Virus record (IMG/VR): IMGVR_UViG_3300030333_008334
Coordinates: 16,462 to 80,461 of that record
Origin: a virus
Length of the DNA stretch: 64,000 nucleotides
Direction: 5' to 3' (one strand)
Both the position numbers and the translations under genes were made by a program. Below, one piece after another: positions 4,269-60,500 of this stretch (position 1 is the stretch's first letter; every line of letters starts with the position of its first letter). Below the pieces are notes generated by a model. It did not search any database and had not been told where the DNA came from. It was given only the letters and a program-made list of their open reading frames with translations.

Positions 4269-7025
4269 TTAACCTCCACCTGCATTCTTGATTATATCAA
4301 CAATATAGGGTTCAAAATCTTCCTCTCCTATGCTTAAATAGAACTTATATGAATTTCCATCAACTCCGCCGGCTCCTCTTTGTTTTATTACAGGAGATGT
4401 ACTAGCGGCAGGAGAAGCAGCTGCTGGTGCGGCTGAAACTGCAGCTGTTGCATATCTAGTTGCCATGGCAGGAGCGGTTATGTTCTCGCCGGCAAATCCA
4501 AATTTTTCAGTTGCGTTGGCAAACTCAACATATGTACCAATTGCTTTGCCTTCCATGCCTTCTGCTAGCTCAGCCAATTCAATAATATGATTTTTCATAT
4601 TCGCCAAGTCTACGCCGCCGGCAGCTGCCACTTTTCCTAAGCCACCAAACATATTTCCAAGTGCGGTTAAATCTGCAGTTGATATGGTTCGTAAAGCCAA
4701 TCCAACAAGTGTAATTCCAGCGGCAAGCATTCCAAAACCAACAAGCGCTGCAGTAGAAACAACTGCCATAACTTTCATTGTAAGCGCCAATACACCCATC
4801 GCAAGAGAAGTCGCTAACATTGCCTCTGCTGCTTTTAAGCCGCTCTCTCCTAACAATACGAATCCATAAACTGCCAAGAATATACCGCCACCAATCATCA
4901 ATATTGCTGCGCCGACTGTTGCTAATGGTATTGCTGCAGCAGCGCCTCCAGCCGCCGAAGCCAAAAGACCTTTTGCCATAAAGAAGAAGCCTGCGGCAAG
5001 TATGCCAATTGCAGCTGCAGAAGCAAGAAGCGTTGGTGCATCAAATTGCTTGAAAGCAGCTGCCAGAGTTGAAAAAGCTTCTGCGGTAAGATATATGGCG
5101 GCGCCAAGACCAGCCATGGCAACACCATACGCTGCCACTACTGCTGCTTTAGCCATCATGCCGGCTGAATCTATTACTGCACCGACGCCGCCGGCTCCTT
5201 GAGTCACATTTTGCCTTTGCAAAGCAGCTGTTTCGGCATTAATCTCTGCTATTCTTTTTGCAGAAGCTGCGGTGTCGACTGCAGCCTGCTTTTTTCTCAT
5301 TGCGATCGCGACCAAAATATTCGTTTTTTGTGTTGCCGCGGCTATAACACCAAATGCATAGTATGCTCTAATTCCGATCATAAGTAACTTGAAGCCGGCA
5401 AGGACCCCGACAATAATCGGAATGATACCTTTATTTTTATCGTTGAAATCTGCAATTCCAACTACTATATCGTGAAAAAACCCAACAACCGGCTGGATGC
5501 CAATTGCAAAATTTTCCATCATTACTTTAAGCATCTTTACGGTATCCATTGCGCGGCGAGCTTGCTCAGCCATGGCTTCTTCTTCTTTTGCCACCAATTT
5601 CATTTTCGCTTGCATCTCATCAAAGGCCTGGATGTCGCCTTGAAGCACCTTTAACGCCAGCGATGTGTCTTTAATTCCTGACAATCTAGCAAAAGCCAAG
5701 ACGCCGCGGGGATTAGCAGCTAATTCTGCTGCCCGGGCACTGTCGTGCATTTGTTCTACCAAAAAGCGCATGCGATCGGCTGAGTCAAGTGCCATCATCT
5801 CCATAGGATTGATTACTTGCGCACCCATCAAAGCATTGAGACTAGCGGCAGCTTTACCGGCGCTTGCAATTTCATCAAACTGTTCAGTAAAGTTTAAAGC
5901 GGTGCTTATATCTGTGTTCAAAGCCATGGCTGCAGCTTTCATTTTTCCAAAAACGTTTTCCATGCGATCGCCGTAATGTGCTAGCTGTTTTATTGCCTGT
6001 CCAAAGTCTTCTGTAATTGTGCTAGCGGCGACGCCAAGAGAATCAGCGAGGCCGGCCAATTGCCTAGTAAGATGCTCTGCTTCAGGTGCAGTTTTTCCTA
6101 AAGCGCCCATCATAAAGTTTAAGTTTTTTGATGCAGTTGCAGTATTAACGCCAGATTTCTCCAATGTTGCAACTAAAAGCGATAGAGAGTCTTGTGTTTG
6201 CTTGTTCATAAGACGAAATCTGCTAAGATTCTCTTCCAAGCTCTGAAAGGCTGCAGCTGCCTCTGCAATGCCAAGCCCTAGGGATCTAAATGATGTACCT
6301 AAATTTTCAATTTGATCAGCGTATTGTCCACCAGAGCTTGTAGATTTTTCAAAGCCGGCTTGTACATTGAAAGTTTCGACTGCCAAGCCCATGGTTGCTT
6401 CTTGAACCTTCATTACGCTGGATCCAATGGCATTTTCTAGAATTGCGCCGGCATTTTTTCCTAGTTGTCTTACCATATCGCCGGCGCTTTTTAATCCGCC
6501 GCCGACTTTGATTACTTCAACAAAACTGCCGTAAAGCGTATCTTTCCACTGAGAAGTAACTCCAGTCCATCCAGCTAATTCTTTGCCGACTCTTTCAGAA
6601 TGCTTGATTACTTTTTCTGTTACGCCAATTGATCGAGTTTGCTCGTCATTAAACTGCCTCATTTGCTTTAATTGATCTTCATTTAATTGAAGAATGCTTT
6701 GCAGCTGATTTTCTTTTTTCTCAAGAGCGAGGCGCTCGGCTTCGTTTAATTCGCCTTTTAGTTTTTTTTCTTCTTTTGTCTCTAGAAGCGTTTCTAGTTG
6801 AGCTTTTGCCCGGGCCTGAACTATTTCTAAATTGCCCTCTAGAAGATCTCTTGCAGATTGAGCTTCTTCCCGCAAAGATTGTAAAATATTCAACTCTTCT
6901 TCGCGGCCTTTAAAAATTTCACCCTGGGCTAATTTAATCTCGGCGTTTTTATTAGCTAGCTCGATTGTAACATCGCGCATTTCTTTTAATATAGCCAGCC
7001 TTAGTTCTTCTGTTTCATTCGCCAT
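4269..7025 (-). CDS. Tail tape measure protein
   Basis: A 918-residue protein with the usual tape-measure build. An N-terminal, highly charged coiled coil (residues 1-145, rich in E, K, Q and L) is followed by a long alanine-rich helical body. A cluster of hydrophobic segments lies between about residues 510 and 790 (for example GIIPIIVGVLAGFKLLMIG and AAIGILAAGFFFMAKGLL). A short proline/alanine linker and a beta-rich tail (YKFYLSIGEEDFEPYIVDII) end the protein. It is the longest gene between the tube and the hub genes, as expected. At about 1.5 angstrom per residue it would set a tail of roughly 135-140 nm, an inference only. It starts 12 bases after the small 114-residue gene, whose neighbours upstream are the chaperone-like reading frames. 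The hydrophobic helices may help pass DNA through the host inner membrane. Confidence 0.85.
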   Translation of the reverse strand: MANETEELRLAILKEMRDVTIELANKNAEIKLAQGEIFKGREEELNILQSLREEAQSARDLLEGNLEIVQARAKAQLETLLETKEEKKLKGELNEAERLALEKKENQLQSILQLNEDQLKQMRQFNDEQTRSIGVTEKVIKHSERVGKELAGWTGVTSQWKDTLYGSFVEVIKVGGGLKSAGDMVRQLGKNAGAILENAIGSSVMKVQEATMGLAVETFNVQAGFEKSTSSGGQYADQIENLGTSFRSLGLGIAEAAAAFQSLEENLSRFRLMNKQTQDSLSLLVATLEKSGVNTATASKNLNFMMGALGKTAPEAEHLTRQLAGLADSLGVAASTITEDFGQAIKQLAHYGDRMENVFGKMKAAAMALNTDISTALNFTEQFDEIASAGKAAASLNALMGAQVINPMEMMALDSADRMRFLVEQMHDSARAAELAANPRGVLAFARLSGIKDTSLALKVLQGDIQAFDEMQAKMKLVAKEEEAMAEQARRAMDTVKMLKVMMENFAIGIQPVVGFFHDIVVGIADFNDKNKGIIPIIVGVLAGFKLLMIGIRAYYAFGVIAAATQKTNILVAIAMRKKQAAVDTAASAKRIAEINAETAALQRQNVTQGAGGVGAVIDSAGMMAKAAVVAAYGVAMAGLGAAIYLTAEAFSTLAAAFKQFDAPTLLASAAAIGILAAGFFFMAKGLLASAAGGAAAAIPLATVGAAILMIGGGIFLAVYGFVLLGESGLKAAEAMLATSLAMGVLALTMKVMAVVSTAALVGFGMLAAGITLVGLALRTISTADLTALGNMFGGLGKVAAAGGVDLANMKNHIIELAELAEGMEGKAIGTYVEFANATEKFGFAGENITAPAMATRYATAAVSAAPAAASPAASTSPVIKQRGAGGVDGNSYKFYLSIGEEDFEPYIVDIIKNAGGG

Positions 7026-7037
7026 TCAGATTATATC

Positions 7038-7382
7038 CTATTCGAAAGGCCACTTTAGACCGGTCTTTCTTTCAAATTTATTTACGGCCGAATCAAGCAT
7101 TGCCCTGCTTCTATAAGTTTTTGGATCATTTAAACCATAATCAGATATCGCATCCAAATACTTTTTTTCACGTGTTATCGCGTTACGAAAGGCAGAAAGC
7201 TGAGATGAAGTTCCTCGCACCTTGACATTAGAAGGTATACCATAATCTTCCCAGAACATTCTACGAAGAATGGTTTTGATGCCATGACCCAAAATACTTA
7301 AAAAACTCTCTGTTACCTCGCCTTTGCTTTTTATATTTAAGTCGATTATAACAGGTGCCAAATTATCTTCGTTGATTTTCAT
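7038..7382 (-). CDS. Conserved-looking small protein upstream of tape measure
   Basis: A 114-residue soluble protein that I do not recognise. It starts MKINEDNLAPVIIDLN, has a central segment FLSILGHGIKTILRRMFWEDYGIP, and ends in a helical region with GLKWPFE. The GHGIK..LRRMFWED segment looks like a conserved core. It is the first gene after a terminator hairpin (7421-7451) and a copy of the candidate late-promoter element (7403-7419), so it probably leads the tape measure-baseplate transcription unit. Its place directly before the tape measure suggests tail assembly or baseplate work, but nothing in the sequence defines a function. Confidence 0.6.
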   Translation of the reverse strand: MKINEDNLAPVIIDLNIKSKGEVTESFLSILGHGIKTILRRMFWEDYGIPSNVKVRGTSSQLSAFRNAITREKKYLDAISDYGLNDPKTYRSRAMLDSAVNKFERKTGLKWPFE

Positions 7383-7455: not shown

Positions 7456-7713
7456 TTACCTTCTTTTAGCTTTAGATGAAGCTTCTTCGTGAGCTTCCTT
7501 TTCCATCTCAAATTGCTTTTGAAGTCTTTTCACAAACCACATTCTTATTATTGTCGGCAAATTGTATGCTTCCAAGAAACCCCATCCACCATGATATTTC
7601 ATTAAAAACAATTGCTCATAAACATTTTGAATGTAATCATTAGTTAGGCCAAAAAAAGTCCGTAGTAAACGGCACCTCCATGTCTTGATCGTAAAAACAC
7701 TCTTGGCAAGCAA
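7456..7713 (-). CDS. Downstream frame of tail assembly chaperone or baseplate hub assembly protein, probably made by frameshift
   Basis: The open frame from TTG at 7713 overlaps the end of the gp26-like gene, but only the part after the overlap (7650-7456, 64 codons) looks like real protein. It reads NDYIQNVYEQLFLMKYHGG, then a tryptophan/aromatic core, AYNLP, a helical segment and a very charged C-terminus ending KAKRR. There is no good start: the TTG lies inside the upstream gene without a ribosome site, and the first internal ATG (7602) would remove the first part of the conserved-looking core. The upstream gene carries seven T's (7657-7651) just before its stop, and a +1 or -2 shift there would join the two frames. 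Position between tube and tape measure matches the G/GT chaperones of lambda and Mu. Confidence 0.55.
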   Translation of the reverse strand: MLAKSVFTIKTWRCRLLRTFFGLTNDYIQNVYEQLFLMKYHGGWGFLEAYNLPTIIRMWFVKRLQKQFEMEKEAHEEASSKAKRR

Positions 7714-8506
7714 ACGGCTGAGTCATATCAACCGTTGGTGTATTTTTGGCATACTCTTTTCTTAAGAACCTTGAATCCATGGCCGGCATATTGTCGACGA
7801 ATTCATTAATGAAGCGGCGATCTGTATTGCCATTCACTGAAACCAACAAAGTCTTCAATTGATTTGTTAAAAGATTAGAAACCTTTTCAGTATTTTTGTT
7901 TCTTACATTGCTATTTTTGACCAGCTGGTTTTCATCTTTGCCAGTCAACAATCTCAAAGCCACTGTTGCATTTGTTCTAGGAAGTTGCAAAGTTATATGA
8001 CCATTCTCATCCAAACTCGCGCCTTGCTCAACAATATCATCAGCCGTGACAACTTTCACATCATCCAAATTGAATTCATGATCTTGAGACGTGCCGCATG
8101 CTGGACATGATATCTTTGTTTGGTAAAGAGGGCCATAGCCTGTAATCCTGGCTTTTACGACCAGTGCATTCTTATCGCATACCAATAAATCATTAACCTT
8201 GACTTTCTTGTCAATAATAATATTTTGCAAGAATCGGTCCAGCGCCAAGCCTTTTCTTAAAAGAGACTGCGAAGTTAAGATATCTTCATCTTTCGCTGTC
8301 ATGAAACGAATCTCCAAGCTTTCTTGACCGTACAAGGGATGATCTTCTGGATAGAATTTTCCTTGTGAGGGCAATTCAACAAACTCTGTTGGCCGGGGCA
8401 TTTGAAATGCCGACGCTTGAGTTTGTTCGTTCATAAGCTCGGGGACAGGAATATCAGCAGGAACGTTTGGCGAACCTAAACGCTCTTCATTATTTCTAGC
8501 ACCCAT
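7640..8506 (-). CDS. T4 gp26-like baseplate hub assembly protein with zinc ribbon
   Basis: A 288-residue protein. After a disordered start, residues about 38-95 read FVELPSQGKFYPEDHPLYG, then LEIRFMTAKDEDILTSQSL and KGLALDRFLQNII. These are the hallmark stretches of the phage baseplate family named after T4 gp26 (T4_baseplate type). A zinc-binding module is likely: CPAC at about 134-137 and CQEC near the C-terminus (about 270-273). Family members act in baseplate hub assembly, and their place between tube and tape measure also fits a tail chaperone. The last codons GAC TTT TTT TGG CCT AAC TAA include a T7 run, discussed as a frameshift site. It starts 57 bases after the tube gene. Confidence 0.75.
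   Translation of the reverse strand: MGARNNEERLGSPNVPADIPVPELMNEQTQASAFQMPRPTEFVELPSQGKFYPEDHPLYGQESLEIRFMTAKDEDILTSQSLLRKGLALDRFLQNIIIDKKVKVNDLLVCDKNALVVKARITGYGPLYQTKISCPACGTSQDHEFNLDDVKVVTADDIVEQGASLDENGHITLQLPRTNATVALRLLTGKDENQLVKNSNVRNKNTEKVSNLLTNQLKTLLVSVNGNTDRRFINEFVDNMPAMDSRFLRKEYAKNTPTVDMTQPFACQECFYDQDMEVPFTTDFFWPN
7651..7657 (-). other. Candidate programmed frameshift site (seven T's)
   Basis: Near the end of the gp26-like gene the minus strand reads GAC TTT TTT TGG CCT AAC TAA. A +1 or -2 slip on the T7 run leads into GGC CTA ACT AAT GAT TAC, the start of the 64-codon downstream frame. A -1 slip meets a stop (GCC TAA) at once. The upstream stop is only 9 bases after the run. Confidence 0.45.
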
Positions 8507-8563: not shown

Positions 8564-9136
8564 TTAAGTGGTTGGGACACCTTTTGCGTTTTCGGCCCAA
8601 TCATAGCGGAAAGTAACGTCCAATGTAACCATTCCGTCGCCGCTATAATCTAGCTCGCCCCATTTAATATCAGTTGGCCATGCATTATTGAGTGTCCAAG
8701 TTTCTGATACTTCTGTATTAGGTGTCGTTCTTCCCAGAGACTTTGCTCCGTTAGAGTCTAAGGTTTGGATCTGAACTTGATTGAAAGCCTCAACAGCCGA
8801 AGCCTTTGTGATGGTTCTTTGTGTTACCAAGTTTGGATCAGTTGGAAGAGTATAGCCCATTGAGATAAGAGCGTCATAGAGTCCTTGAGTCATATCATTA
8901 GCACCGCCGGGATCAACAAATGAAATCGTAACAGGATCCCATTCGGCTATTCCGGGGTAGTAAAAAGTGTGATTTAAATACTTGTGTGGAGTTTCACCAA
9001 CTTTTACACCAGGACGGCCGGCTTTTGTAGCATAATATCTCGAATTCGTAAGGCCTGGAATCAAAACAATAAACTTATATTGTCTTTTTGGCTCTAGCGT
9101 TGATGCTGCCCAGAAAAAATTTGTCTCATTTGCCAT
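8564..9136 (-). CDS. Tail tube protein (gp19-like)
   Basis: A 190-residue protein, close to the length of T4 gp19 (163). It begins MANETNFFWAASTLEPKRQY, followed by FKFIVLIPGL, which is the first tube strand. The core stretch YLNHTFYYPGIAEWDPVTIS and the closing segment ELDYSGDGMVTLDVTFRYDW are typical of T4-like tube subunits. It polymerises inside the sheath to form the DNA channel. It lies directly downstream of the sheath gene (61-base gap), the conserved sheath-tube order. A good ribosome site (GGAGGG) lies 10 bases before the ATG. I see nothing unusual. Confidence 0.88.
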   Translation of the reverse strand: MANETNFFWAASTLEPKRQYKFIVLIPGLTNSRYYATKAGRPGVKVGETPHKYLNHTFYYPGIAEWDPVTISFVDPGGANDMTQGLYDALISMGYTLPTDPNLVTQRTITKASAVEAFNQVQIQTLDSNGAKSLGRTTPNTEVSETWTLNNAWPTDIKWGELDYSGDGMVTLDVTFRYDWAENAKGVPTT

Positions 9137-9197: not shown

Positions 9198-12161
9198 TTA
9201 ATCTTCGAATGATGCTCCTGACCTGCTGACCACAAAGTCAAGTGCAATAAATTCAATTGCTCTGGCAGGCTTGAGGAAAATCTTTGCATACATGATATTT
9301 CTATCAATCAAATCTTCAGTTGTTGTAGACTCGTCCAAGACAACCTTGAAGTCTGTTAAGCCTAAGCCAACCTTAATATCGCGCAAGAAGGGAATCGCTC
9401 TGCTCGTAAAGTTTGCCCAAGTTGAAGGCACGTTCTGCTCGAACAGAGTAGTCGCTGCAATTCGCGAAATCTCCTTTTTGATGAAGATCATCAATCTTCT
9501 TACGTTAATTCTGTCTAAAGCGGAAGGTGTCACTTGCAGTGTCTTCTGACCGAAGATGACAATGCCTTCTGCTGGGAATGTCGCAATTGGGTTAATGTTT
9601 GCCTCATAAAGCTCGTCGCGCATCTTTGATGTCAAGCGCTCGCGAACTCCAATAACCGGAACGCCGGCTGAGCCTTCTGTCAAGCCGCCGCGTGTGAAGC
9701 CTGCAGGAGCAAACCACAGTGCGGATTTGGCCTGTGAGCTAGCAAAGGTGCCAATTGCTGCAATCGAGGGAGGAGCCCATAGGATCGATCCATTAATCGA
9801 ATCTCTGATGCGAACCCAAGGATAATATGCGCATGCATAACTTGAATTCAAAGCTCGGTTTCTTAAGTTAGTAATAGTTGTTGTATGACTACCATAAACT
9901 TCTGCACCAGATTCCCACTTGGGCTGATAGCCACCCTTGAGATCAACAACCGCTAAGGCATCGCCTCTATCTTCACAAGTATTGATCAGGTGATTAGTCA
10001 GTCCCTCGTGCCAAAGGCCAGGGATGGAGGCCATGTTCATTTCTACAACCTCGGGATCTGTAAGTGTATCAATCGCTTTTTTCACACTATAGAAAGCAGA
10101 GCTATTTTTCTCTGTCTTGTCTTCCATTGAAGTGCTATTGAAGGGATCTCTTTCGGTAATGTTAATACCGTCAAAGCCACCTACAAGAGGAATTGTAAAG
10201 CGATTGTGGCCGGCATCAAGAATATCCTTGTAGCTGCCACTGGTCGCTGTTACTGAATTACCAGCCATGCGACTGCCGCTTTGGTAAAGGACAATTCCCT
10301 CTCCATCTTTGCGCAAATCGTCTAATGTAAAGATAAATGCAGTTTCTGTTGAGTTCGAACTAACGCCTGTTGGTAGTCTGCGTGCTAAATCAATTGTGCT
10401 TTCATCGAAAGCTATTCCGGTTTCTGTTCTCCTCATATCAACGCCAAAGTAGGCATCGCGAGGAGAGCCTAGGCTATTATCAACAGAGCCTGATCGAAGC
10501 GTAAATGTTGGGAATTGCATGTGAATTGTCGATGCAATTGAATTTGCATATGTTAGGCCCTCATTGGCGGATTGACGCGTGTTGGTGACGTTCATCACTA
10601 CAAAACGCGGTACTGTTCCTGACAAGATGTTGTAGCCGCTGGGGCCGCCTTTGGTGGCTGAACCGACAATGCTTCCCGAACCGATAACGAATGCTGCGTT
10701 GAAGGCAGTACTGCCATCACCAAAAGCTGTGGATCCAGTAGCAGTATGAGCGATGCTAAAATTCTTGAATTTTGTCGGACCATAAAAGCCGTAAGGCAAT
10801 AGAAGCGGATCCGCTACGCCGGCATCGACGTCGCCGTCCATTTGAATATAAATGTACTGAGACAAGTTCTCATAATTTCCCTTATGAATATATCTCTTAG
10901 TATCTTCATCCCACTCAGTGTAAGAATCACCAATTTTTCTAGCAACATAATTGACAGAATTTGGATTAAGATTGCAGCCAGTGAAGCTTTCTAATATTCT
11001 TACTGCACCGTCATTATCATCAATCTTTCGCACCACTACGGTGAACGATCCATATGGATTGTAGGTGTCTGTTGCAACTCGAACGTCTTGAATAGAAATT
11101 TTTATGCTACTTTGTGCCCATTCTCCACTATCAAGAGCATGAAACTTAAATAGCTTTGAAGTGTGATTTGGATGATTGGTTGGATCGAATCCGCCGACTG
11201 GGACGCCAGTACCCTGTCTTAAATCCTGAGAAATAATCCATCCTGTACTAGACTTTTTAGCTCCTTCTCGGTGGTGTTGCCAGGAGCTAGTACCTTCGCG
11301 TAGGCCCAGCACAACACCCATGTAACCATTAGCATCAGAAGAGGCAACCAAATCGCTAACAGCTCTATCAAATGTCTCTCCGATCCAATAAGTTTGTCTA
11401 TTATCTTGATTACGTGATAAATTACTTGTTAAAATTGGATTAGTATTTAAAGCTTTGCGAATATATTTTTCACTATTCCGATCAAAGTTGAAATCTGTTT
11501 TCTTTGTTATATTTCCATCTCTATCTTTAATAACAGCTGTAAAAGTTTTGCCTGTCGCCTTGCTGAGTGTTAGCACAGCAGTACCAGTTACCTGCATAGC
11601 GGCAGGACCAGGGACCGCACCACTTAATTCGAAGCTGCCCTCTGTCAAGTACACAACAGCCGCTAGTGATCCAGTAGCAACGTTGCTTGGACTGGCGCTG
11701 GAACCGGTTGTAGGTGCAATAAACAATCCATACGCTCCGCCGTTGGCGTTTCTGTCAGTGCCAATTTCAGCAGAGGTGCCAACGGCCCCTTTGAGCCAAG
11801 TCTCCCAGCCACCATAGCCAGCATATGCATTCGCCTTGCTGTGCTGTTCTCCCAAGAGTCTAACATAAGTTAATGGGTTAGCGTTTCGCAACCATGCTTG
11901 TGCAGCATACATACCATACATCGGCGTTGTTTGATTGCCTTCTCTCCAGACGTCACTGCCTTGACCTCCCGGCATGGGAACACCAAAAACGTCAACAAAC
12001 TCCGAAAAAGAGTTGACTTTCGTAGGCCTCATAGAAGGACCTTTTGGCGCGCGGCCAATAATTACAGGACCGATCGCGTCGGGCACTGCGGGCAATTGTG
12101 AATTATCGATCTCATCGATAAAAACACCGGGTGATACAAACTTAAATTTTTTAACAGACAT
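9198..12161 (-). CDS. Tail sheath protein (gp18-like), enlarged
   Basis: A 987-residue protein, against 659 in T4 gp18. The start MSVKKFKFVSPGVFIDEIDN and the following GPVIIGRAPKGP are the sheath N-terminus that links neighbouring subunits. The C-terminal third (from about residue 690, ERDPFNSTS... onward) holds the conserved contractile core, including INVRRLMIFIKKEISRIAAT, VPSTWANFTSRAIPFL, and the last strand ARAIEFIALDFVVSRSGASF. The extra length sits in the middle (about residues 130-600), beta-rich and full of glycine and serine, probably surface domains. One copy of the candidate late-promoter element lies 58 bases upstream, and the ribosome site AGGAGAG is clear. Confidence 0.9.
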   Translation of the reverse strand: MSVKKFKFVSPGVFIDEIDNSQLPAVPDAIGPVIIGRAPKGPSMRPTKVNSFSEFVDVFGVPMPGGQGSDVWREGNQTTPMYGMYAAQAWLRNANPLTYVRLLGEQHSKANAYAGYGGWETWLKGAVGTSAEIGTDRNANGGAYGLFIAPTTGSSASPSNVATGSLAAVVYLTEGSFELSGAVPGPAAMQVTGTAVLTLSKATGKTFTAVIKDRDGNITKKTDFNFDRNSEKYIRKALNTNPILTSNLSRNQDNRQTYWIGETFDRAVSDLVASSDANGYMGVVLGLREGTSSWQHHREGAKKSSTGWIISQDLRQGTGVPVGGFDPTNHPNHTSKLFKFHALDSGEWAQSSIKISIQDVRVATDTYNPYGSFTVVVRKIDDNDGAVRILESFTGCNLNPNSVNYVARKIGDSYTEWDEDTKRYIHKGNYENLSQYIYIQMDGDVDAGVADPLLLPYGFYGPTKFKNFSIAHTATGSTAFGDGSTAFNAAFVIGSGSIVGSATKGGPSGYNILSGTVPRFVVMNVTNTRQSANEGLTYANSIASTIHMQFPTFTLRSGSVDNSLGSPRDAYFGVDMRRTETGIAFDESTIDLARRLPTGVSSNSTETAFIFTLDDLRKDGEGIVLYQSGSRMAGNSVTATSGSYKDILDAGHNRFTIPLVGGFDGINITERDPFNSTSMEDKTEKNSSAFYSVKKAIDTLTDPEVVEMNMASIPGLWHEGLTNHLINTCEDRGDALAVVDLKGGYQPKWESGAEVYGSHTTTITNLRNRALNSSYACAYYPWVRIRDSINGSILWAPPSIAAIGTFASSQAKSALWFAPAGFTRGGLTEGSAGVPVIGVRERLTSKMRDELYEANINPIATFPAEGIVIFGQKTLQVTPSALDRINVRRLMIFIKKEISRIAATTLFEQNVPSTWANFTSRAIPFLRDIKVGLGLTDFKVVLDESTTTEDLIDRNIMYAKIFLKPARAIEFIALDFVVSRSGASFED

Positions 12162-51561: not shown

Positions 51562-54500
51562 TTATAATTCATATTCAACGCTTAATTTCGCAGTCTCAAC
51601 CAAACTAAAGAAATCATAAGGCCAGTTATAATTATAACGCGATTGCAGCCTGACATCTTCGGAGACTGATGAGCCTCCAGCAAGATTACCAACGTTATCA
51701 ACTTGAAATAGTGAAGAAACTTCATTTTTATTTTTCAGCTGTCTCATTGACATATTAGCGCGTTTTTTAACTTTAAAGATCAACCATTTAACGCCACCGT
51801 ATTGTTGTGTTGGCCCAAATATTTTTTTAAGCGTTTTGGAATTTTCGTTGATGTTTTCTTGACGATGATTGCCCGACCATTGACCTTCGGCTATTTTTGT
51901 ATTTAAATGGTCTAATCTTCCCCAGAATTCATAATTTGATCTGTCACCACTCATGGCATGGCTTAATACCGAAGCTTCTTTCTTCGCTCTCATTCCCGCA
52001 TCAGGCAAAAGATTTTGCCATATATCTCCTAAGTCTTTGTTGTCTAATTGCCTAGAGAATTCATGTATATACATGATAAATGGATCAATTCCATCTTCTT
52101 GATTATTCATAAATCTTTGACGCGTCAGAAGATATTTTTTGCCCGAAGGTAAATCTTTCGATCCTATTCCTCTATGATAAAAGTCTAATTCTGGTGGTAT
52201 AACATATTGATCCATCATGTTTATCATTCTAGAAATACTAGTTTCTCCAATATCTTCGGCCGGGAACGTCAAATCCATTTTTGAATGCGCGTTTTTCGAA
52301 CCCAAGACCTGGGAAGCCAAATCAACATGCACGGCCGGCTTTCCACTCGTAAAATTTTCGTATTGAGCGTAATACTCATCTGGGTGAATTTTAATAAAGT
52401 GAATATTGACTCCATATTTTGTGAAAGGCGAGTATGTAACCCCGGGAAGTTCATTTTCTAAAAATGGAATTGCAACAATAGCTTCTGTGACTGTCTTAGA
52501 GTTTGCAATTTGTCCAATATATTTAGATAACTCTTGCTCTTCGTCGGCGTTTGGACCATTTCTAAAGCCAGCCACATTTAACAATGATTCTTCTGGATTA
52601 TTTGTAGCATCTGAAAGGGTAATTTTAACTCCTCTACGCGGGAATGAAACAACTGTTCCGTCGCTTAAAGTAGTAGTTTCATTTCCAAATCCATCAACAT
52701 TATCAGTATTGGAATATCCCATCCAAATTGATCTTCCTGTTCTGTCGCTGAAGTATCCTTTATTAGCATTGTCTTTTTGCTGTTCGTGTGTTAAATCAGG
52801 TCTATGACGACCGGTGCCAACATAACTGCTTTCAGCTAAATTAATCACAGGGCATTCAAATTTAGTACTAATCTCCCATACCTTTTCTTTCTTCGTGCTA
52901 CCGTCCGGGGCTTGAAAAAGCACTTCTTTAATCTTAAACAAATCTAGAGAAGACGAAACCTTCATTCTATGTTTGTAGGCAGTATGTCCTCTGGATCCAG
53001 TAGATGGACTACTAGAATCTAAAGTAAGAGCCACATCTTTAGCTAATACAGGAGTGCCGTCGTCGCGATAATATACCGGCCTGTCAAACAAATTATATTC
53101 TTCACTTACAGAATTTGTTTGAATATTGGTTATAATTTCTTCCAGTGTTGGAATAGCGGCTTGCATCGGAGCAGCTCCAAGAGCACCATCTACTTCAGCC
53201 ACGAGGTTGCCTAATTGGCTACCGGCATCCGGTTGGTGGGTATAAGCCATCTTGTAAACTGCTTTTCCATAATAATACGGGGGAGTGTAAGGTGCATAAC
53301 AAGGATCTGTTTCGTGACTTGTTAGATTATATAATTCGCCGCTTGTGCCATATGATGTGCCTTCTACATCTGGTTGAGCACTGTCTGTAGCGATCAAAGT
53401 TGTAATTGATCCAGTGGCAGTTGGGCCGCCGGTCCAACTCTTGCCGTTAGATGCATCAGCTTTGTCACTCCATTTAAGCAATGCTGGTCCGAATATTGAG
53501 CCGCGGCGGGGCAGAGGTTGATATTGTGTCTGTCTGTCTGTAATTGGCACTAGTGGCTTTCTTGGCCCCTCTGCCATGACAAATTCGCTGCCGGCTTGGG
53601 GACTTTCTGGGCTTGGACCTCCGGGGCGATATTGATCAAATATTTCGATAGATACATTCATTAAGTATGTGCGGTCTCTAACCATTGGCTTGATTTGTGA
53701 AGATCTTGCTGAAGTGAAGCTGGTTAGGCCAGAATTCTTCAAAAAGAAATTAGGAATTTCAGACAAGAAATTATTTGCGGCTTTTTCATAAAGTGGGCCG
53801 CGTTCGCCAGTCCAAGCAGCATAAAAAGAGCCAGCCATTTCTTTGCCTAACTTCGCATTTCCTTGGTCATCAGTACCGCACATGTGCCATGTCGGTTCGG
53901 TATAATAAATTTTTGGTACCTCTCCGAGCCCTTCGGGCGGGGCGCTTGGAATATTACTTAAGTCATATAATGTCTCAAAAGGTAATCTATAATTTGGAGC
54001 GTCAATTAATATTGCGCCATCTGTGTGATCTTTAAGTTTTATACCGTCACCAATTTCTGTAACAAAATTTGTAACGGCCGGCTCTCTCTGATTGATATAG
54101 ATTGGGTAATCAACTGCAACTCCTGATTTGATTGTGTTAAACATAATACCAGGGGCAAAGGTTGGCTGTAACATAGACTGCATTTTTCCGGCTTGATGTA
54201 CGTCAATTAATGCCTGTTTCCATCCCTTGGCGCCTTCGTGTCCAGCAGCAGCTAAATCAAAAAGTCGAGTTGAGAAATGAACGCCATCTTTGAGGCCGTA
54301 GTTTAAACCGCGGTGAGGGTATGATGTTGTGCCTTTGCTACCCATTAGTTCATATGTAGGATGCGCACTAGCAGTAATAAATTCTGCGCCTCTTTCTACA
54401 TATGTTCCAGCAGGAGTATAAGCTATGCCACCAGACACTGCGTCGCCGTGTTCCCATACCTCTTTACTATGGTGGTAACCTAGATAAGTTTTCTTATTAA

Positions 54501-57500
54501 CTGAAAGATTGTCTAAACTGCAGCTTAAGAACGGACCGATTGACTGCGAGAATAAAGTTGCTAACTGCATGGTTCTAGTAACAGGATAGAAACCATAATA
54601 TGGCATTAATTTCGTAATCGCATCAAATCTTAAAGTGATGGCTCTTGGTCGGGCGCCGCCTCCGAGCGAAATATCTTCACCAACTTTGTTATGCATATAG
54701 TCCATAGAATCTGATATGCAATAGCGCCTTAAGAATTGTTCTCTCATTACACCAGTATTTTTGTATTGCTCTGTTAAAATTGAAGTGCCTGGGGGGAAAT
54801 ACAAGCTAGATGACATAGACCCTTGACCTCTTAAAGTAAACAGGCCCGGGTTTGGCTTTGTATAGTCAAAATTATATTGGGCGTATTCATCCATATTTTC
54901 TGACATATTAAACTCAGCTAAAACTCCATAATCTTTTCCAAACACCCTAACATCTTCTATATAATCTTCGTAAGAATCATACCATGGATTTTTATTAGCA
55001 ATCTTATTTGCACGATAATAAGGAGCGGTCTTGACATAGCCCAAGGCGCCTGAGAAATCTAATGTATTTGCAATATATTCTCCATTGCCGTTTGTGAAAG
55101 TATAGTGTTCGCCTATGATATTTGACTGAGAACTAACAATGGCGTGACCTAGCCTTCCTGCTTTATGAATTGTCTCTGCACTGCCACTTTCTTTACCTGC
55201 GGGCGCGCCAGAAAAAGAAGAAGAAAGGCCGGCGACATTAAAATTATTGTAAGGATCTCTGAACAAGCACGGAGAAGCATAAGGCCTACGATAGCCGCCT
55301 CTGAACATTGTATCAAAAGTTGGAGGCGGCATGTTTCTATATCCCTTCTGGCTCCATTCCGAGCCGCTATGAATTGTCATATATGCAGTATTGTCACTTA
55401 TACCGCCCATAGCCGCATAATTATGCCTGGCGCCGAAACTGTTGTTTGTATTTGTTTTCCAATTGTAAGCTCTAGAATTTATACTCGTTATTCTTCCTAC
55501 AGTAGCAACACCGGGCTTGATTGTTCCTGTGCCAAAATTATCTACTCCAGCTGCTTTTCCAACATATGGATCCATAAACGAAGCAGTGCCGCATGCCCAG
55601 TTTGCCGAGGCCCATGAAGTAAGAAAGTTCATCGATGGATCTTCCGCTAATTCTCCTTTCATTCCAAACGTGCCTGACGTAAAATGATTGCCAAAAGTTG
55701 AACCAGAAATAAGATTATAGCTGCCGCGGAAAGTATGAGCTTTGAAGTATTGCCCCGTGGGACTAACGGCGGAGCTGCTAGTATCGACATGATGTCTCAG
55801 CACACCTTCATTGTCTCCTTCTTGCGCAGGGGGCAATCCAGAGCCGGCAGGTCGTGGCAAAACGCTTGATCGATTTAGAGAATCTAGTTCAGCACTTGAA
55901 GAAAATATTACAAGCCAATCCTGTTTATAAGTTGGGCCGTAATAACCTCCCTGTGGGATTAGTGGGGTATCGCCATGAAAACGATTATTTGTTTCTAATA
56001 TGCCGCCGTATTTGCCATCATCCAAAGGCCAGGCTGATAAAGGCATGTCCATAAACGTAGATCCAATACTGGGATTACAGAACGGCAAAACAGTACCGCC
56101 AAAATCCATATTTTCACTTGCTGAAACCACATGATTGGTTAGTCGACCTTGAGCGACTGAAACTGCATCACAGAAAGGCATTGGCTTGCTTGGGTGGTAA
56201 TCCATGAAATATGTACCATCAGACATTTTTGGGCCGCCAAAACGGCTAATACGCCAGCCCATTGAATTCGAAGCTGAACCTTCAGTTCTTAATCGATCTG
56301 GACTGTCTATTGTATGGCGATTTTTCCAGAAAGTATTATGTGAAATTCTATCATAGCCTTTTTTACTGTGGCCTTCTATTTCTGAATATTCTGTTCTTAC
56401 TCTTGTTTTATTTAAATACGTATGTTGTGCGCGGGGCCAAACAGTTTCTGTGTATCGATGTTTAAATACACTAGTATCATTTGCCATAACTTCGTATATT
56501 TTGTTTTCTGTTGACTCGTGATAATCATCGATTTCATCTAGTTGCAGTCTGGTATTTAATGCTTTATTGTCAAATTTAACAAGATTATTAGCATATGAAT
56601 AGACATATGTAAATCCGGATTTTTCCGCAACCATAGGCTTAAATTTAGAAGAAACTGGAGGTTCCGTATACTTGTGTATTTTTAATCCGTCTGATTTAAT
56701 CTTGCGATGCAAAAGAGATATCTCAGCCGCCAATGAGCCAAACTCTCTAGCTTTGTGCCAATCATAAGGCCTGGTATCGCCAATAACCCCTTCTTCTGTG
56801 GTCAGAGTAATAATATTACTTCTGCGTTGATGTCTAACGATTGGATGTTCCCCAGTTCTAATTTGTTTCCAAGAAGGATAATGGTAAGGGCCATTTCTAT
56901 GGTGAAGCAAGCTATTCAAAATGCTTCCCGGCATTTGACTGCTTACGACCGCATCATTAGATGCTTTCCCTACGTAACCTAGGTGAAAAGCTGTAGGGTA
57001 TGGGTTTTTTAGGCTGCCGGCGGAGGTGCGCAAACTCGGGTCGACAAAGTGGCCCAAAGTATTGGCGCTGGAAGTTATTGGCTCGTGAATGTTAATATTT
57101 AAACCTATAAAATCATTAACAAAAAATCTAGCATTCAAAGGAGTCCCATCGGCTGTTACTCCTAGAACAGGATTAGTAACATGCGTCGTGACGTATGATC
57201 CAATTTCGCTTGCAGATAAAAATGTAAATTGATGAGATGCAGTTGCATGGCCCCATGGAGCAGTTGGCTTGTTGCTGTTTGCGCTTGAGGCCAGTGCGTA
57301 TACATGATTATAAGGCTGTTTTTGTTTTTGACTTAGAGATCTCCATATCCAATTATATTGAGTATCGCTTCTTGGAATTGTATGTTGCACAAGCCAGTTA
57401 TCATTTTGTGTCTTATAGGAAGTTGCTTCTTGGCCATCATAATTGTACTCATAATCGGCTTGTGGATTATAAGGCCTTAAGTAACCACTTCCTGAAGTGT

Positions 57501-60500
57501 AAAGTCTATAGCCAGGATTTCTATTTATTTTGTGGTAAGAAGCAGTTAAGAAATATCCTGTGTCTCCGTAGCGAGAAACTGGATTTTCAGCACCTGGGGC
57601 GGTATGAGTTGCGCCATCTCGCAGTCCAAATTTCTCACTGTGACGTACTAGAAGGCTAGCGGAACCATAGTTTGCTAAGAATCTTCTAGTTGCCCAGTTT
57701 CTCCACGGCAAAGCGTTGTATACAGAAAAAGTCTCAGAAGCCCTATCTAGATATCCCCTAGACAAAGTTGCGGGATCGCCTGGAGCGGAGAATCTTTCAG
57801 CAATGACTGTTTTGTTTCTGCTGCCATCTTTTAATTTTCCTCGATCGACTAATTGATAATCTTGGATGCCTAAGACTGCATCTAATTTGGATAATTCATC
57901 AGTAACACCGCCTTCTCCGTCGACACCTTCACGAATCCATAGGTTGTTGACATTTCTACCTGAAGTTTGTACAACTTGGTAGTTATGTTCATAATTACCT
58001 ATAATTGTTGGTAGCTTTTGATGACCTTTTTGTTCCTCAACCACAACCTCGCCATTGTTTTTCGCAACAGCACCCGGCAATTCGGTCGCGGCCTGATGCT
58101 TGATATTTCTAATATTAACCGGTCGTTTCGCGTATTCATCTCGATACATTGTTGCGCGGGGGCGATCTAAGTTTATAACCAGTCCAGAATTAGCATCGTA
58201 TCTAAGCATTTTTTTATAGTTAATGTCGTATAATGACATTTCTGCGTTTTCAGTTACAAAGGCAGTTAAATTGATATTATCAATCGCAACATAGCCCAAA
58301 TATCCATAAGCAGGATGTCCAAAATTAACAAATCTTATGTGAAAACTGGTACCTATGTAAGAGGTCAAATCAACAGTCGCTTGACGCCATGCAGAGCCTT
58401 GGGCACCTAATAAAGAAGTTGCGCTGACGCCATTCCAACTAGTTGTCAAGGTTGTATAAGTAGATTTATCTGCTGTGTGCTGTAGTAAGAGTTCACCAGG
58501 ATTTGGCCCTATCATTAAATAGAAAAATGTCAACTTTGGCCCGGGTGTTTTAGCGGGATCAACATTCGTTAAATCAATCTTCGGCGTTGTAAACTGAAAC
58601 TCTCTTACGTTACTATAGTTTGTTGTTTGCTCAATGGTAGTTGCCGGTGGAATAATCGTTGTGCCATGGCCAGCATTGCCGACAATAACCGCAGTGGTAT
58701 AATTTTCTGGAGTTACTAGCATTCGATAGCCATTTTGAGACGAATAGCTCGTTCCGCCGTGAATAAAGTTATTTTTTAAATTAAAACCAAAGGAAGGAAT
58801 TCCTGCTCCGGGGCCTCCATAATCTATATACTTTTCAGATGAATTTGTTTTTGGACGATTATCAAAACCGCTGTCAGCGTTAAATTCAGTCACTGAACTA
58901 TAGCCATCAAAATCTTCTTTCAAAAGATTGACAAGTGTTGTGTTGTTATATGGCTTTCTAAGATACCAGCCCTCTGGGCGTGTGGCTTCGGTATCAATAC
59001 CGCGAATAGAAGAACTGTAATTTATATCAATATGTCGATATTGTAAACCACCGACATATTTTTCAGTAAATGGGCCTTGCATTGGCGCCTCATTTCCAAT
59101 AGTATATTTATCTTCATGAATATTCGTTATATCTATCCTAGAGGCAGTAACAAATGAAGCATAGCCTCCTTCTCCCAAAGAAGAAGAATATACAGCGAAT
59201 GGAACAATTAAATTAGCTTTTGATTTACCATAAGAATCTTGTGTATTTGTATCTGTAGAAACTCCTTTGCTAAAGACTTCGGCAGTTCCTTTTATCTTTA
59301 CCTTATTGTTTAAAGTCTTATCATCTTTACATACTGGATATTGTGATGAATCTTTCTTAATTGTAATAAAGGATGTTCCGTCTTTAAATTTAATTGCTTG
59401 TCGATGATATCCAAAAAGATTATTTGAGTCTTTATTAGACCCACCATCTAAATGCTTAGAAGTGTCAATAGCGAACTTATAAGGCTTAGACAATCTTCGA
59501 AGAGCATATGTTGACCCTTTATATGTTACGCCGGCGGCGTCTTTTCTGCGAGGACCTGAAGCACTGTTTTCTGTTGTTACAACATCTTTTATAGTATTTC
59601 GTTGGCTGTCGACTGTTGTGTTGCCAGAAGTTAATGCAGCTGAATCTCTTTCGGCGCGCTCTGAAAACCACAGACAGCCTTTGTCTTGACCCAAGGAAGA
59701 GGTAGCATGACCAAATTTCCAATTATAGGTAAGTTCATTAATACCAAAAATCTTACCCTCGGGTGGGTCTTGGTTCATCTCTAGAGTTGGAAACTTATTC
59801 CAGTATTTGTTTCTTTCCAGAACATGACTTTCGATCATGTTTCTTAAACTATCACTCACGTTAGCAGATGCCGGCAGCAAATCGTGGATCATGCTTATAA
59901 TTGCTGAATCAAACCACTTGTAATAATTTAAATATTTCTCTATATCTGGAGTGTTTTGAACTTTTTCAAAGAAAAGCTGGCGAAGCTTGGCCATCTCTTT
60001 GTAGTCTTGTCGGTATCTATTGACAGGATCGCCAATCACATTGTTGAAATACTCTACAGTATCAAAGAAGTTTATCATCTCTTGAGAGATCGTTTGATAC
60101 ATACTTTTCTCTAGAGCAACATAATATTGAATTGGTCGACTTTCTCTTGTGAATACATCATCATCTTGAGAGACAATGTTAATCATATCATCAGAATTGA
60201 TTAATTCCGGCAATTGTTTTTTTGCAGCTGGAATATAAAATTTATCAACAATCTTATTGCTGCTGGTTACAAAGAACTGTCCTTTGGCGTCATGTTGCTT
60301 ATCAACAATATTGGCAAACAAAGTTGGATATCTAGATCTATAATTATTTGAACCTGAAGAATAGTCAACCACATGAAACGTTCCGTCAGCAGCCGAAGAA
60401 GTTACGTTTTCAAAATCCCAATTTAATATTAAAGTCTCTATTGGTCGAATTCTAGATCCAGACATCTGTGTCTGGCTAAAAAGAGAATTTCCATAATCGT

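What the first reader, a model, noticed from the sequence alone, without database searches (positions are those of the whole stretch)
7456..7713. Probable +1 or -2 programmed frameshift in a tail gene between tube and tape measure
The gp26-like gene ends GAC TTT TTT TGG CCT AAC TAA. The next real-looking protein stretch (64 codons, NDYIQNVYEQLFLMKYHGG and on) is in the +1/-2 frame, has no credible start codon, and begins exactly at the T7 run. A -1 slip is excluded because it meets TAA at once. Lambda (-1) and Mu (-2) make their tail chaperones by frameshift in the same genomic position, between tube and tape measure. Here the upstream product carries a gp26-type baseplate domain and a zinc ribbon, which is not a usual chaperone partner. 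If real, it links T4 gp26-type genes to the G/GT scheme.
Basis: partly seen in the sequence, partly recalled or inferred. Interest (0 to 1): 0.75.

Follow-up and report, generated by a model that had tools for sequence, protein, structure and literature searches.

The report
Frameshift-made tail chaperone in T4-type phage
A marine virus of bacteria appears to make two versions of a tail-building helper protein from one gene by having some ribosomes skip one letter at a run of Ts; this kind of trick is known from other phages, but here it goes in the unusual forward (+1) direction and is kept across a deep branch of T4-like viruses.

Summary
On the minus strand, the gp26-like gene (8506-7640) ends GAC TTT TTT TGG CCT AAC TAA, and a 64-codon frame in the +1/-2 phase (7650-7456) continues it without a usable start codon. 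All 80 IMG/VR relatives keep this frame relation and a UUU_UGG site; the P-site TTT is the only fully fixed two-fold codon of 21. Sixteen of 81 loci have no ATG/GTG/TTG before the conserved core. Thirteen have TTC TTT TGG, which argues for +1 over -2. The +1 frame encodes a three-helix domain related, through cyanophage 'gp51', to the C-terminus of T4 gp51. T4 gp26 and gp51 are themselves paralogues. The pair is therefore most likely the T4-type tail assembly chaperone (short and long form). One PF12322 gene plus a frameshift occurs in this branch (+1) and in cyanophages, KVP40 and some jumbo phages (-1); T4's closer relatives have two genes instead. Genes 26/51 as T4's chaperones were published in 2022 (Vladimirov et al., known here through citing papers). 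New here, as far as could be checked: the conserved +1 UUU_Y site, its spread, direction switches, and selected Shine-Dalgarno-like elements upstream. No protein evidence was available.

The parts
7640..8506 (-). gp26-like gene, zero frame (288 aa); proposed short chaperone form (TAC-N); PF12322 T4_baseplate with two CxxC pairs (zinc ribbon)
   Evidence: PF12322 E 3.6e-16; phrog_150 baseplate hub E 2e-19
7649..7657 (-). shift site TTT TTT TGG; P-site codon TTT = 7654..7652, zero-frame A-site TGG = 7651..7649, base skipped in +1 = T7651
   Evidence: UUU_UGG kept in 81/81 loci incl. window; preceding Phe codon TTT 68, TTC 13
7456..7650 (-). +1-frame extension (64 aa + stop); proposed C-terminal domain of the long form (TAC-C, gp51 C-terminus-like)
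   Evidence: Conserved in 80 relatives; codon-position bias; AlphaFold pLDDT 95, three helices; homology chain to Kyanoviridae gp51 and T4 gp51
7456..8506 (-). predicted frameshift product, 349 aa, junction ...TTDFF-GLTND... for +1
   Evidence: translation with one four-base step
7640..7642 (-). zero-frame stop TAA, two codons after TGG
7674..7679 (-). SD-like GGAGGT about 20 nt upstream of the P-site codon; role unproven
   Evidence: Mean duplex energy to anti-SD -8.1 kcal/mol in 70 relatives vs background -0.7 +/- 0.6; Glu codon GAG 55/55 vs 45% elsewhere
7659..7662 (-). CGGA just 5' of the T run; possible short SD-like element at prfB-like spacing; role unproven
   Evidence: third base of codon -3 is G in 49/70 vs 11-15% background; second-strongest synonymous bias of 228 columns
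8564..9136 (-). tail tube gene upstream (gp19-like)
   Evidence: phrog_4542 tail tube E 6.8e-22
7038..7382 (-). 114-aa ORF of unknown function between the pair and the tape-measure candidate; HTVC008M has a 110-aa ORF at the same place
   Evidence: no family match
4269..7025 (-). 918-aa tape-measure candidate (weak identification)
   Evidence: phrog_167 E 0.23; no tblastn match; position as annotated tape measures in immuto, LIS04, HTVC008M

Best explanation
The locus encodes the tail assembly chaperone of a T4-type contractile phage in two forms. Most ribosomes read the gp26-like frame to its stop and make the short form. A minority shift by +1 at UUU_UGG: with peptidyl-tRNA-Phe on UUU in the P site and slow decoding of the single Trp codon, the tRNA re-pairs one base downstream (UUU to UUU), and translation goes on with GGC CTA... 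to add a 64-residue three-helix domain. The short form would coat the tape measure protein; the minority long form would, through its extra domain, recruit the tail tube protein, as gpG and gpGT do in lambda. Shown here: conserved frame relation, conserved shift site, lack of start codons in many relatives, coding-type conservation of the second frame, homology of the two parts to T4 gp26 and, through intermediates, to the C-terminus of T4 gp51. Inferred: that the shift happens on the ribosome, its frequency, the exact shift codon, the roles of the two forms, and any stimulatory role of the upstream SD-like elements.
For: 80/80 IMG/VR relatives (45-100% identity) keep the +1 relation and UUU_UGG. 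In 71 distinct loci the P-site TTT is the only fully fixed codon of 21 conserved two-fold columns, while other Phe columns mix TTT and TTC. 16/81 loci lack any ATG/GTG/TTG from the upstream stop to the conserved core, 46/81 lack ATG. Third-position excess of substitutions in the +1 frame. The +1 relation also holds in Mel-JY01, immuto (80/80 loci of its type), SP-15, LIS04, GXN1, RM378, pSt2308 and an uncultured 484-kb phage, with UUU_Y at or next to the junction in all; UUU_Ynn is described as especially prone to +1 shifts in bacteria even without a stop codon (PMC5009743). Second domain vs Kyanoviridae -1 'gp51' hhalign 83% (E 9e-6), Kyanoviridae vs T4 gp51 C-term 97% (E 2e-10), no shuffled profile as good in 150. 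T4 gp26 and gp51 both PF12322, gp51 being a gp26-like domain plus C-terminal extension. One PF12322 copy in frameshifting phages, two in T4 and five related Straboviridae.
Against: No peptide or reporter evidence. The direct profile comparison of the window-group domain with the T4 gp51 C-terminus is negative (0.2%); the link runs through cyanophage sequences. Fold matches of the domain to gp51 and annotated tape-measure or tail-assembly chaperones are not significant by E-value (0.2-3.3). The tape measure of the window itself is only weakly identified. In the window's own T7 site a -2 slip would also pair. No downstream RNA structure was found. In Kyanoviridae an ATG two codons after the gp26 stop is conserved in 75/83, so separate initiation is possible there.
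Confidence: 0.88

Rival explanations
1. The shift is -2 rather than +1 on the T7 run (Mu-like), giving DFFFGL instead of DFFGL.
For: On TTTTTTT both give the same frame with full re-pairing; Mu uses -2 at this genomic position (established knowledge).
Against: 13/81 loci have TTC TTT TGG, immuto-type phages TTT CTT/CTA TGG, and more distant ones TTT CAC, TTT CGT, TTT CGC, where -2 re-pairing is poor but +1 at UUU_Y works.
Confidence: 0.06
2. The second frame is an independent gene started on its own (TTG at 7713 or an internal codon), perhaps by translational coupling.
For: A TTG exists 21 codons upstream in the same phase. LR756511 has a real ATG overlapping the stop; most Kyanoviridae have an ATG two codons after the stop.
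Against: 16/81 loci have no ATG/GTG/TTG before the conserved core; the SD-like GGAGGT is not followed by a start codon in that frame; the shift-site codon is fixed.
Confidence: 0.04
3. Sequencing or assembly error in a homopolymer broke one continuous gene.
For: A T7 run is a typical place for indel errors.
Against: Same frame relation in 80 metagenomic loci and in isolate genomes sequenced independently, with non-homopolymer sites in some (TTT CTT TGG, TTC TTT CGT).
Confidence: 0.01
4. Transcriptional slippage on the T run rather than a ribosomal shift makes the fusion.
For: T7 runs can slip in RNA synthesis.
Against: 13 loci carry TTC TTTT (only four T in a row) and other phages lack a run.
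Confidence: 0.03

Closest known systems
T4 gp26 / gp51 (tail assembly chaperones of T4-like phages, Vladimirov et al. 2022)
   Same: Zero frame is PF12322 like both T4 proteins; the extension is related, through cyanophage sequences, to the extra C-terminus of gp51. Short plus long form.
   Different: T4 and its closer relatives make the two forms from two paralogous genes; here one gene and a +1 shift. T4 gp26 ends with TTC TTT and has no continuation in another frame.
Kyanoviridae and KVP40 gp26 with the small 'gp51' ORF
   Same: Same two parts, adjacent, shift site at the end of gp26; KVP40's record already notes similarity of the small ORF to the gp51 C-terminus.
   Different: -1 frame with T_TTT_TTC in 83/83 loci and an SD-like GGAGG about 10 nt upstream.
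Lambda gpG/gpGT
   Different: Lambda shifts -1 on another slippery sequence; sequence homology to lambda was not tested here.
HF1-group haloviruses and HSTV-2 (+1 proposed, TTT-CGC in the HF1 group, between tube and tape measure; PMC7230728, PMC5009743)
   Same: +1 direction, UUU_C site, same genomic position.
   Different: Archaeal viruses; homology of the proteins was not tested here; the shift there is also unproven.
Influenza PA-X UCC_UUU_CGU and bacterial UUU_Ynn +1 sites
   Same: P-site UUU re-pairing +1 with a slow A-site codon; GXN1 has the same UUU CGU.
   Different: The window site has UGG (Trp) in the A site.

Membership tests
Tail assembly chaperone with short and long form (G/GT type) | Located between tail tube and tape measure genes | tested here: met
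   Tube at 8564-9136; tape measure weak in window, annotated in immuto, LIS04, HTVC008M
[quoted passage not shown]
Tail assembly chaperone with short and long form (G/GT type) | Shift direction -1 (usual, but not defining: +1 and -2 cases are described) | tested here: not met
   -1 frame stops after two codons; +1 favoured
Tail assembly chaperone with short and long form (G/GT type) | Short form in excess, binds tape measure; long form binds tube; absent from virion | not testable with these tools
   needs biochemistry
T4-type chaperone (gp26/gp51, PF12322) | N-terminal part matches PF12322 above the curated cut-off | tested here: met
   60 bits vs 24.5
T4-type chaperone (gp26/gp51, PF12322) | C-terminal extension homologous to the gp51 C-terminus | tested here: inconclusive
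   Direct hhalign negative; chain window group - Kyanoviridae - T4 gp51 positive against shuffled controls; phrog_634 hits in 7/35 members, best E 0.006
prfB-type +1 site | Stop codon in the A site | tested here: not met
   A-site codon is TGG; the stop comes a few codons later
prfB-type +1 site | SD-like element about 3 nt before the shift codon | tested here: inconclusive
   Selected G giving CGGA at -8..-5, weak pairing (about -3 kcal/mol)
DUF6760 (PF20546) | Score above curated cut-off | tested here: not met
   Window 14.7 bits vs 27; 27/35 relatives match at E up to 1, best E 1.7e-5

The most novel reading that the evidence does not exclude
A whole deep branch of T4-type phages (marine relatives of the window, Mel-JY01, immuto, SP-15/LIS04, GXN1, RM378, pSt2308) makes its tail chaperone by a +1 shift at UUU_Y without an A-site stop, helped by upstream Shine-Dalgarno-like elements; the direction flipped to -1 at least once inside that branch, and a gene duplication replaced the shift in T4's ancestors.
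Probability: 0.55. Interest if true: 0.62.

Novelty: new variant of a known kind. Interest (0 to 1): 0.5.

Why it matters
T4 was long listed as the exception to the frameshifted tail chaperone rule (PMC5009743). The comparative picture here puts T4's two-gene solution beside two opposite frameshift solutions of the same homologous pair, which suggests that having both forms, not the mechanism that makes them, is what is kept. It also offers a large natural set of +1 sites (UUU_Y with no A-site stop) with selected flanking sequence, useful for studying how bacterial ribosomes shift forward, and it corrects annotation in many phage genomes where the extension is missed or given a wrong start (for example HTVC008M).

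Tried and rejected
Hairpin CCGT..ACGG just upstream of the site: pairs formed in only 61-95% of distinct sequences, few compensatory changes; not supported. Downstream stimulatory structure: 60-nt folds at +7 are no more stable than shuffles (z -0.08). Direct hhalign of the window-group domain against the T4 gp51 C-terminus: negative. Structure search of the gp26-like model against PDB: nothing significant (the HK97 tail assembly chaperone, 2ob9, appears at E 4.8). PDB sequence searches with the fused protein and with T4 gp51: no match. Viral scans with XacN1 gp26 found none, with SP-15 and KVP40 gp26 only themselves or one near relative. Two family scans failed on a wrong reference. tRNA scan of the window: none, so no phage-borne Phe or Trp tRNA in this part. 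The 2022 Virology paper is not held, so its content is known here only from citing papers and memory.

Full report
What is there. All tail genes of this window run on the minus strand: portal (gp20, PF07230), major capsid (gp23, PF07068), terminase, sheath and tube mark it as a T4-type myophage; the source is a 112,740-base virus record. The gp26-like gene at 8506..7640 is a PF12322 T4_baseplate protein (60 bits, cut-off 24.5). It ends GAC TTT TTT TGG CCT AAC TAA. A second frame, one base on, runs from the T run to a stop at 7456 and codes GLTNDYIQNVYEQLFLMKYHGGWGFLEAYNLPTIIRMWFVKRLQKQFEMEKEAHEEASSKAKRR. The -1 frame closes at once.

Is it real. Eighty IMG/VR relatives (45-100% identity in gp26) were read at the same place. 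All keep the second domain in the same +1 phase, and all keep TTT TGG in phase at the end of the zero frame. The codon before is TTT in 68 and TTC in 13 of 81 loci including the window. Among 71 distinct sequences, the P-site TTT is the only one of 21 conserved two-fold codons that never varies, while Phe codons of the gene overall are 75% TTT. In 16 of 81 loci no ATG, GTG or TTG occurs in the second frame between the last stop and the conserved VYEQ core, and 46 lack ATG. Differences between relatives in the second frame fall mostly on its third codon position (55%). A chance frame, an assembly error and independent initiation are therefore all poor explanations.

Beyond the close relatives. 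The same arrangement was found in other phage records. +1: Mel-JY01 (TTT TTT TGG), immuto (TTT CTT TGG; 80 of 80 immuto-type loci +1), uncultured LR756508 (TTT CTA), SP-15 (TTT TTT CAC), LIS04 (TTT TTT AGT), GXN1 (TTC TTT CGT), RM378 (TTT TTT TGG), pSt2308 (TTT CGC). -1: XacN1 and RAS14 (T_TTT_TTT), PA5oct (T_TTT_TTC), and the Kyanoviridae and KVP40 group, where 83 of 83 loci have T_TTT_TTC with both codons fixed although TTC is the minority Phe codon in that gene. One jumbo phage, LR756511, has a plain ATG for the second part. For HTVC008M the annotated gp51 start lies inside the conserved domain and the -1 frame has no ATG before it, so the record as annotated truncates it.

Who the two parts are. 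T4 gp26 and T4 gp51 both match PF12322 and phrog_150; gp51 is a gp26-like domain plus about 48 further residues. The window-group second domain is related to the Kyanoviridae -1 domain (hhalign 83%, E 9e-6), and that to the gp51 C-terminus (97%, E 2e-10); none of 150 column shuffles reached either score. The direct comparison of the two ends of this chain is negative, so the step to T4 rests on the intermediates. KVP40's own record already says that its small ORF resembles 40 residues of the gp51 C-terminus. T4 gp26 stops right after the ...EFF.. motif at which the frameshifting phages shift, and gp51 runs through the corresponding place in frame. Copy number agrees: one PF12322 gene in every phage with the shift in which the profile scores, two in T4, RB43, phage 31, phiP4-3, AbaM_3014 and SFHK24 (Mel-JY01 and immuto are below the profile's reach but give one tblastn place each). 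A maximum-likelihood tree places all gp26 and gp51 rows of these six Straboviridae in one clade (99/97) next to KVP40 and Kyanoviridae (-1), and the +1 phages in the other main branch with XacN1, RAS14 and PA5oct (-1) nested in it. The reading is one duplication in T4's ancestry and at least one change of shift direction. Several rows have long branches and the root is only a midpoint.

Mechanism. The common element of the +1 sites is UUU followed by a pyrimidine. [quoted passage not shown]). HF1 haloviruses have a proposed TTT-CGC +1 site in the same genomic position (PMC7230728). At TTC TTT TGG a -2 slip would put tRNA-Phe on UCU, so +1 is favoured. Among 228 codon columns of the zero frame the five with the strongest synonymous bias all lie within eight codons upstream and two downstream of the site. 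The one at +2 is explained by coding in the second frame; the others are not. They create GGAGGT at -25..-20 (duplex energy to the anti-SD -8.1 kcal/mol against a background of -0.7) and CGGA at -8..-5. In the -1 Kyanoviridae a GGAGG lies about 10 nt before the heptamer, the spacing known from dnaX (established knowledge). At 20 nt the strong element of the window group fits neither the dnaX nor the prfB spacing, and its role is open. No downstream structure was detected.

Function. Position and architecture are those of the tail assembly chaperones: a short form that coats the tape measure and a rarer long form whose extra domain brings in the tube protein (lambda gpG/gpGT, PMC5009743). For T4-like phages this was proposed in 2022 by Vladimirov, Gautam and Davidson, cited in PMC10885494 and PMC12846349; from memory, their abstract says that frameshifting is kept in several T4-like groups and replaced by separate genes 26 and 51 in T4's group. 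The window finding is therefore a new variant of a known kind. What could not be found in the held literature is the +1 direction for this family. The second domain is predicted as three helices (pLDDT 95); fold matches include cyanophage Gp51 and three annotated tape-measure or tail-assembly chaperones, but at E 0.6-3.3 they are suggestive only.

Verdict. Experimental proof is missing.

Noticed in passing
window 7674-7679 (-) and the same place in 70 relatives: Strong SD-like GGAGGT about 20 nt upstream of the shift codon, with Glu always GAG (55/55); spacing fits no known stimulator.
   Followed up: partly
L104 (HTVC008M) 1867-2004: Annotated gp51 starts at an internal ATG and omits the conserved LETYYDLIFK; probably the C-part of a -1 frameshift product.
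   Followed up: yes
L106-L185 (Kyanoviridae-type): An ATG two codons after the gp26 stop is kept in 75/83 loci beside the slippery heptamer; a separate product may also be made.
   Followed up: partly
L089 (LR756511): Jumbo phage in which the second part has its own ATG overlapping the gp26 stop instead of a shift site.
   Followed up: no
+1 domain vs PF20546: 27 of 35 relatives match DUF6760 weakly (best E 1.7e-5); whether that family is a counterpart in bacterial contractile injection systems was not tested.
   Followed up: no
window 9198-12161 (-): Sheath-like protein of 987 aa, much longer than usual sheath proteins; only its C-terminal part matches sheath families.
   Followed up: no
window 51562-63216 (-): 3,884-aa ORF; its last 999 residues match no Pfam family.
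   Followed up: no
L269-L273: Contigs filed under bacterial MAGs (Actinomycetes, WOR-3, Flavobacteriales, Alphaproteobacteria) carry the same phage locus with the +1 site; likely phage sequence binned with bacteria.
   Followed up: partly
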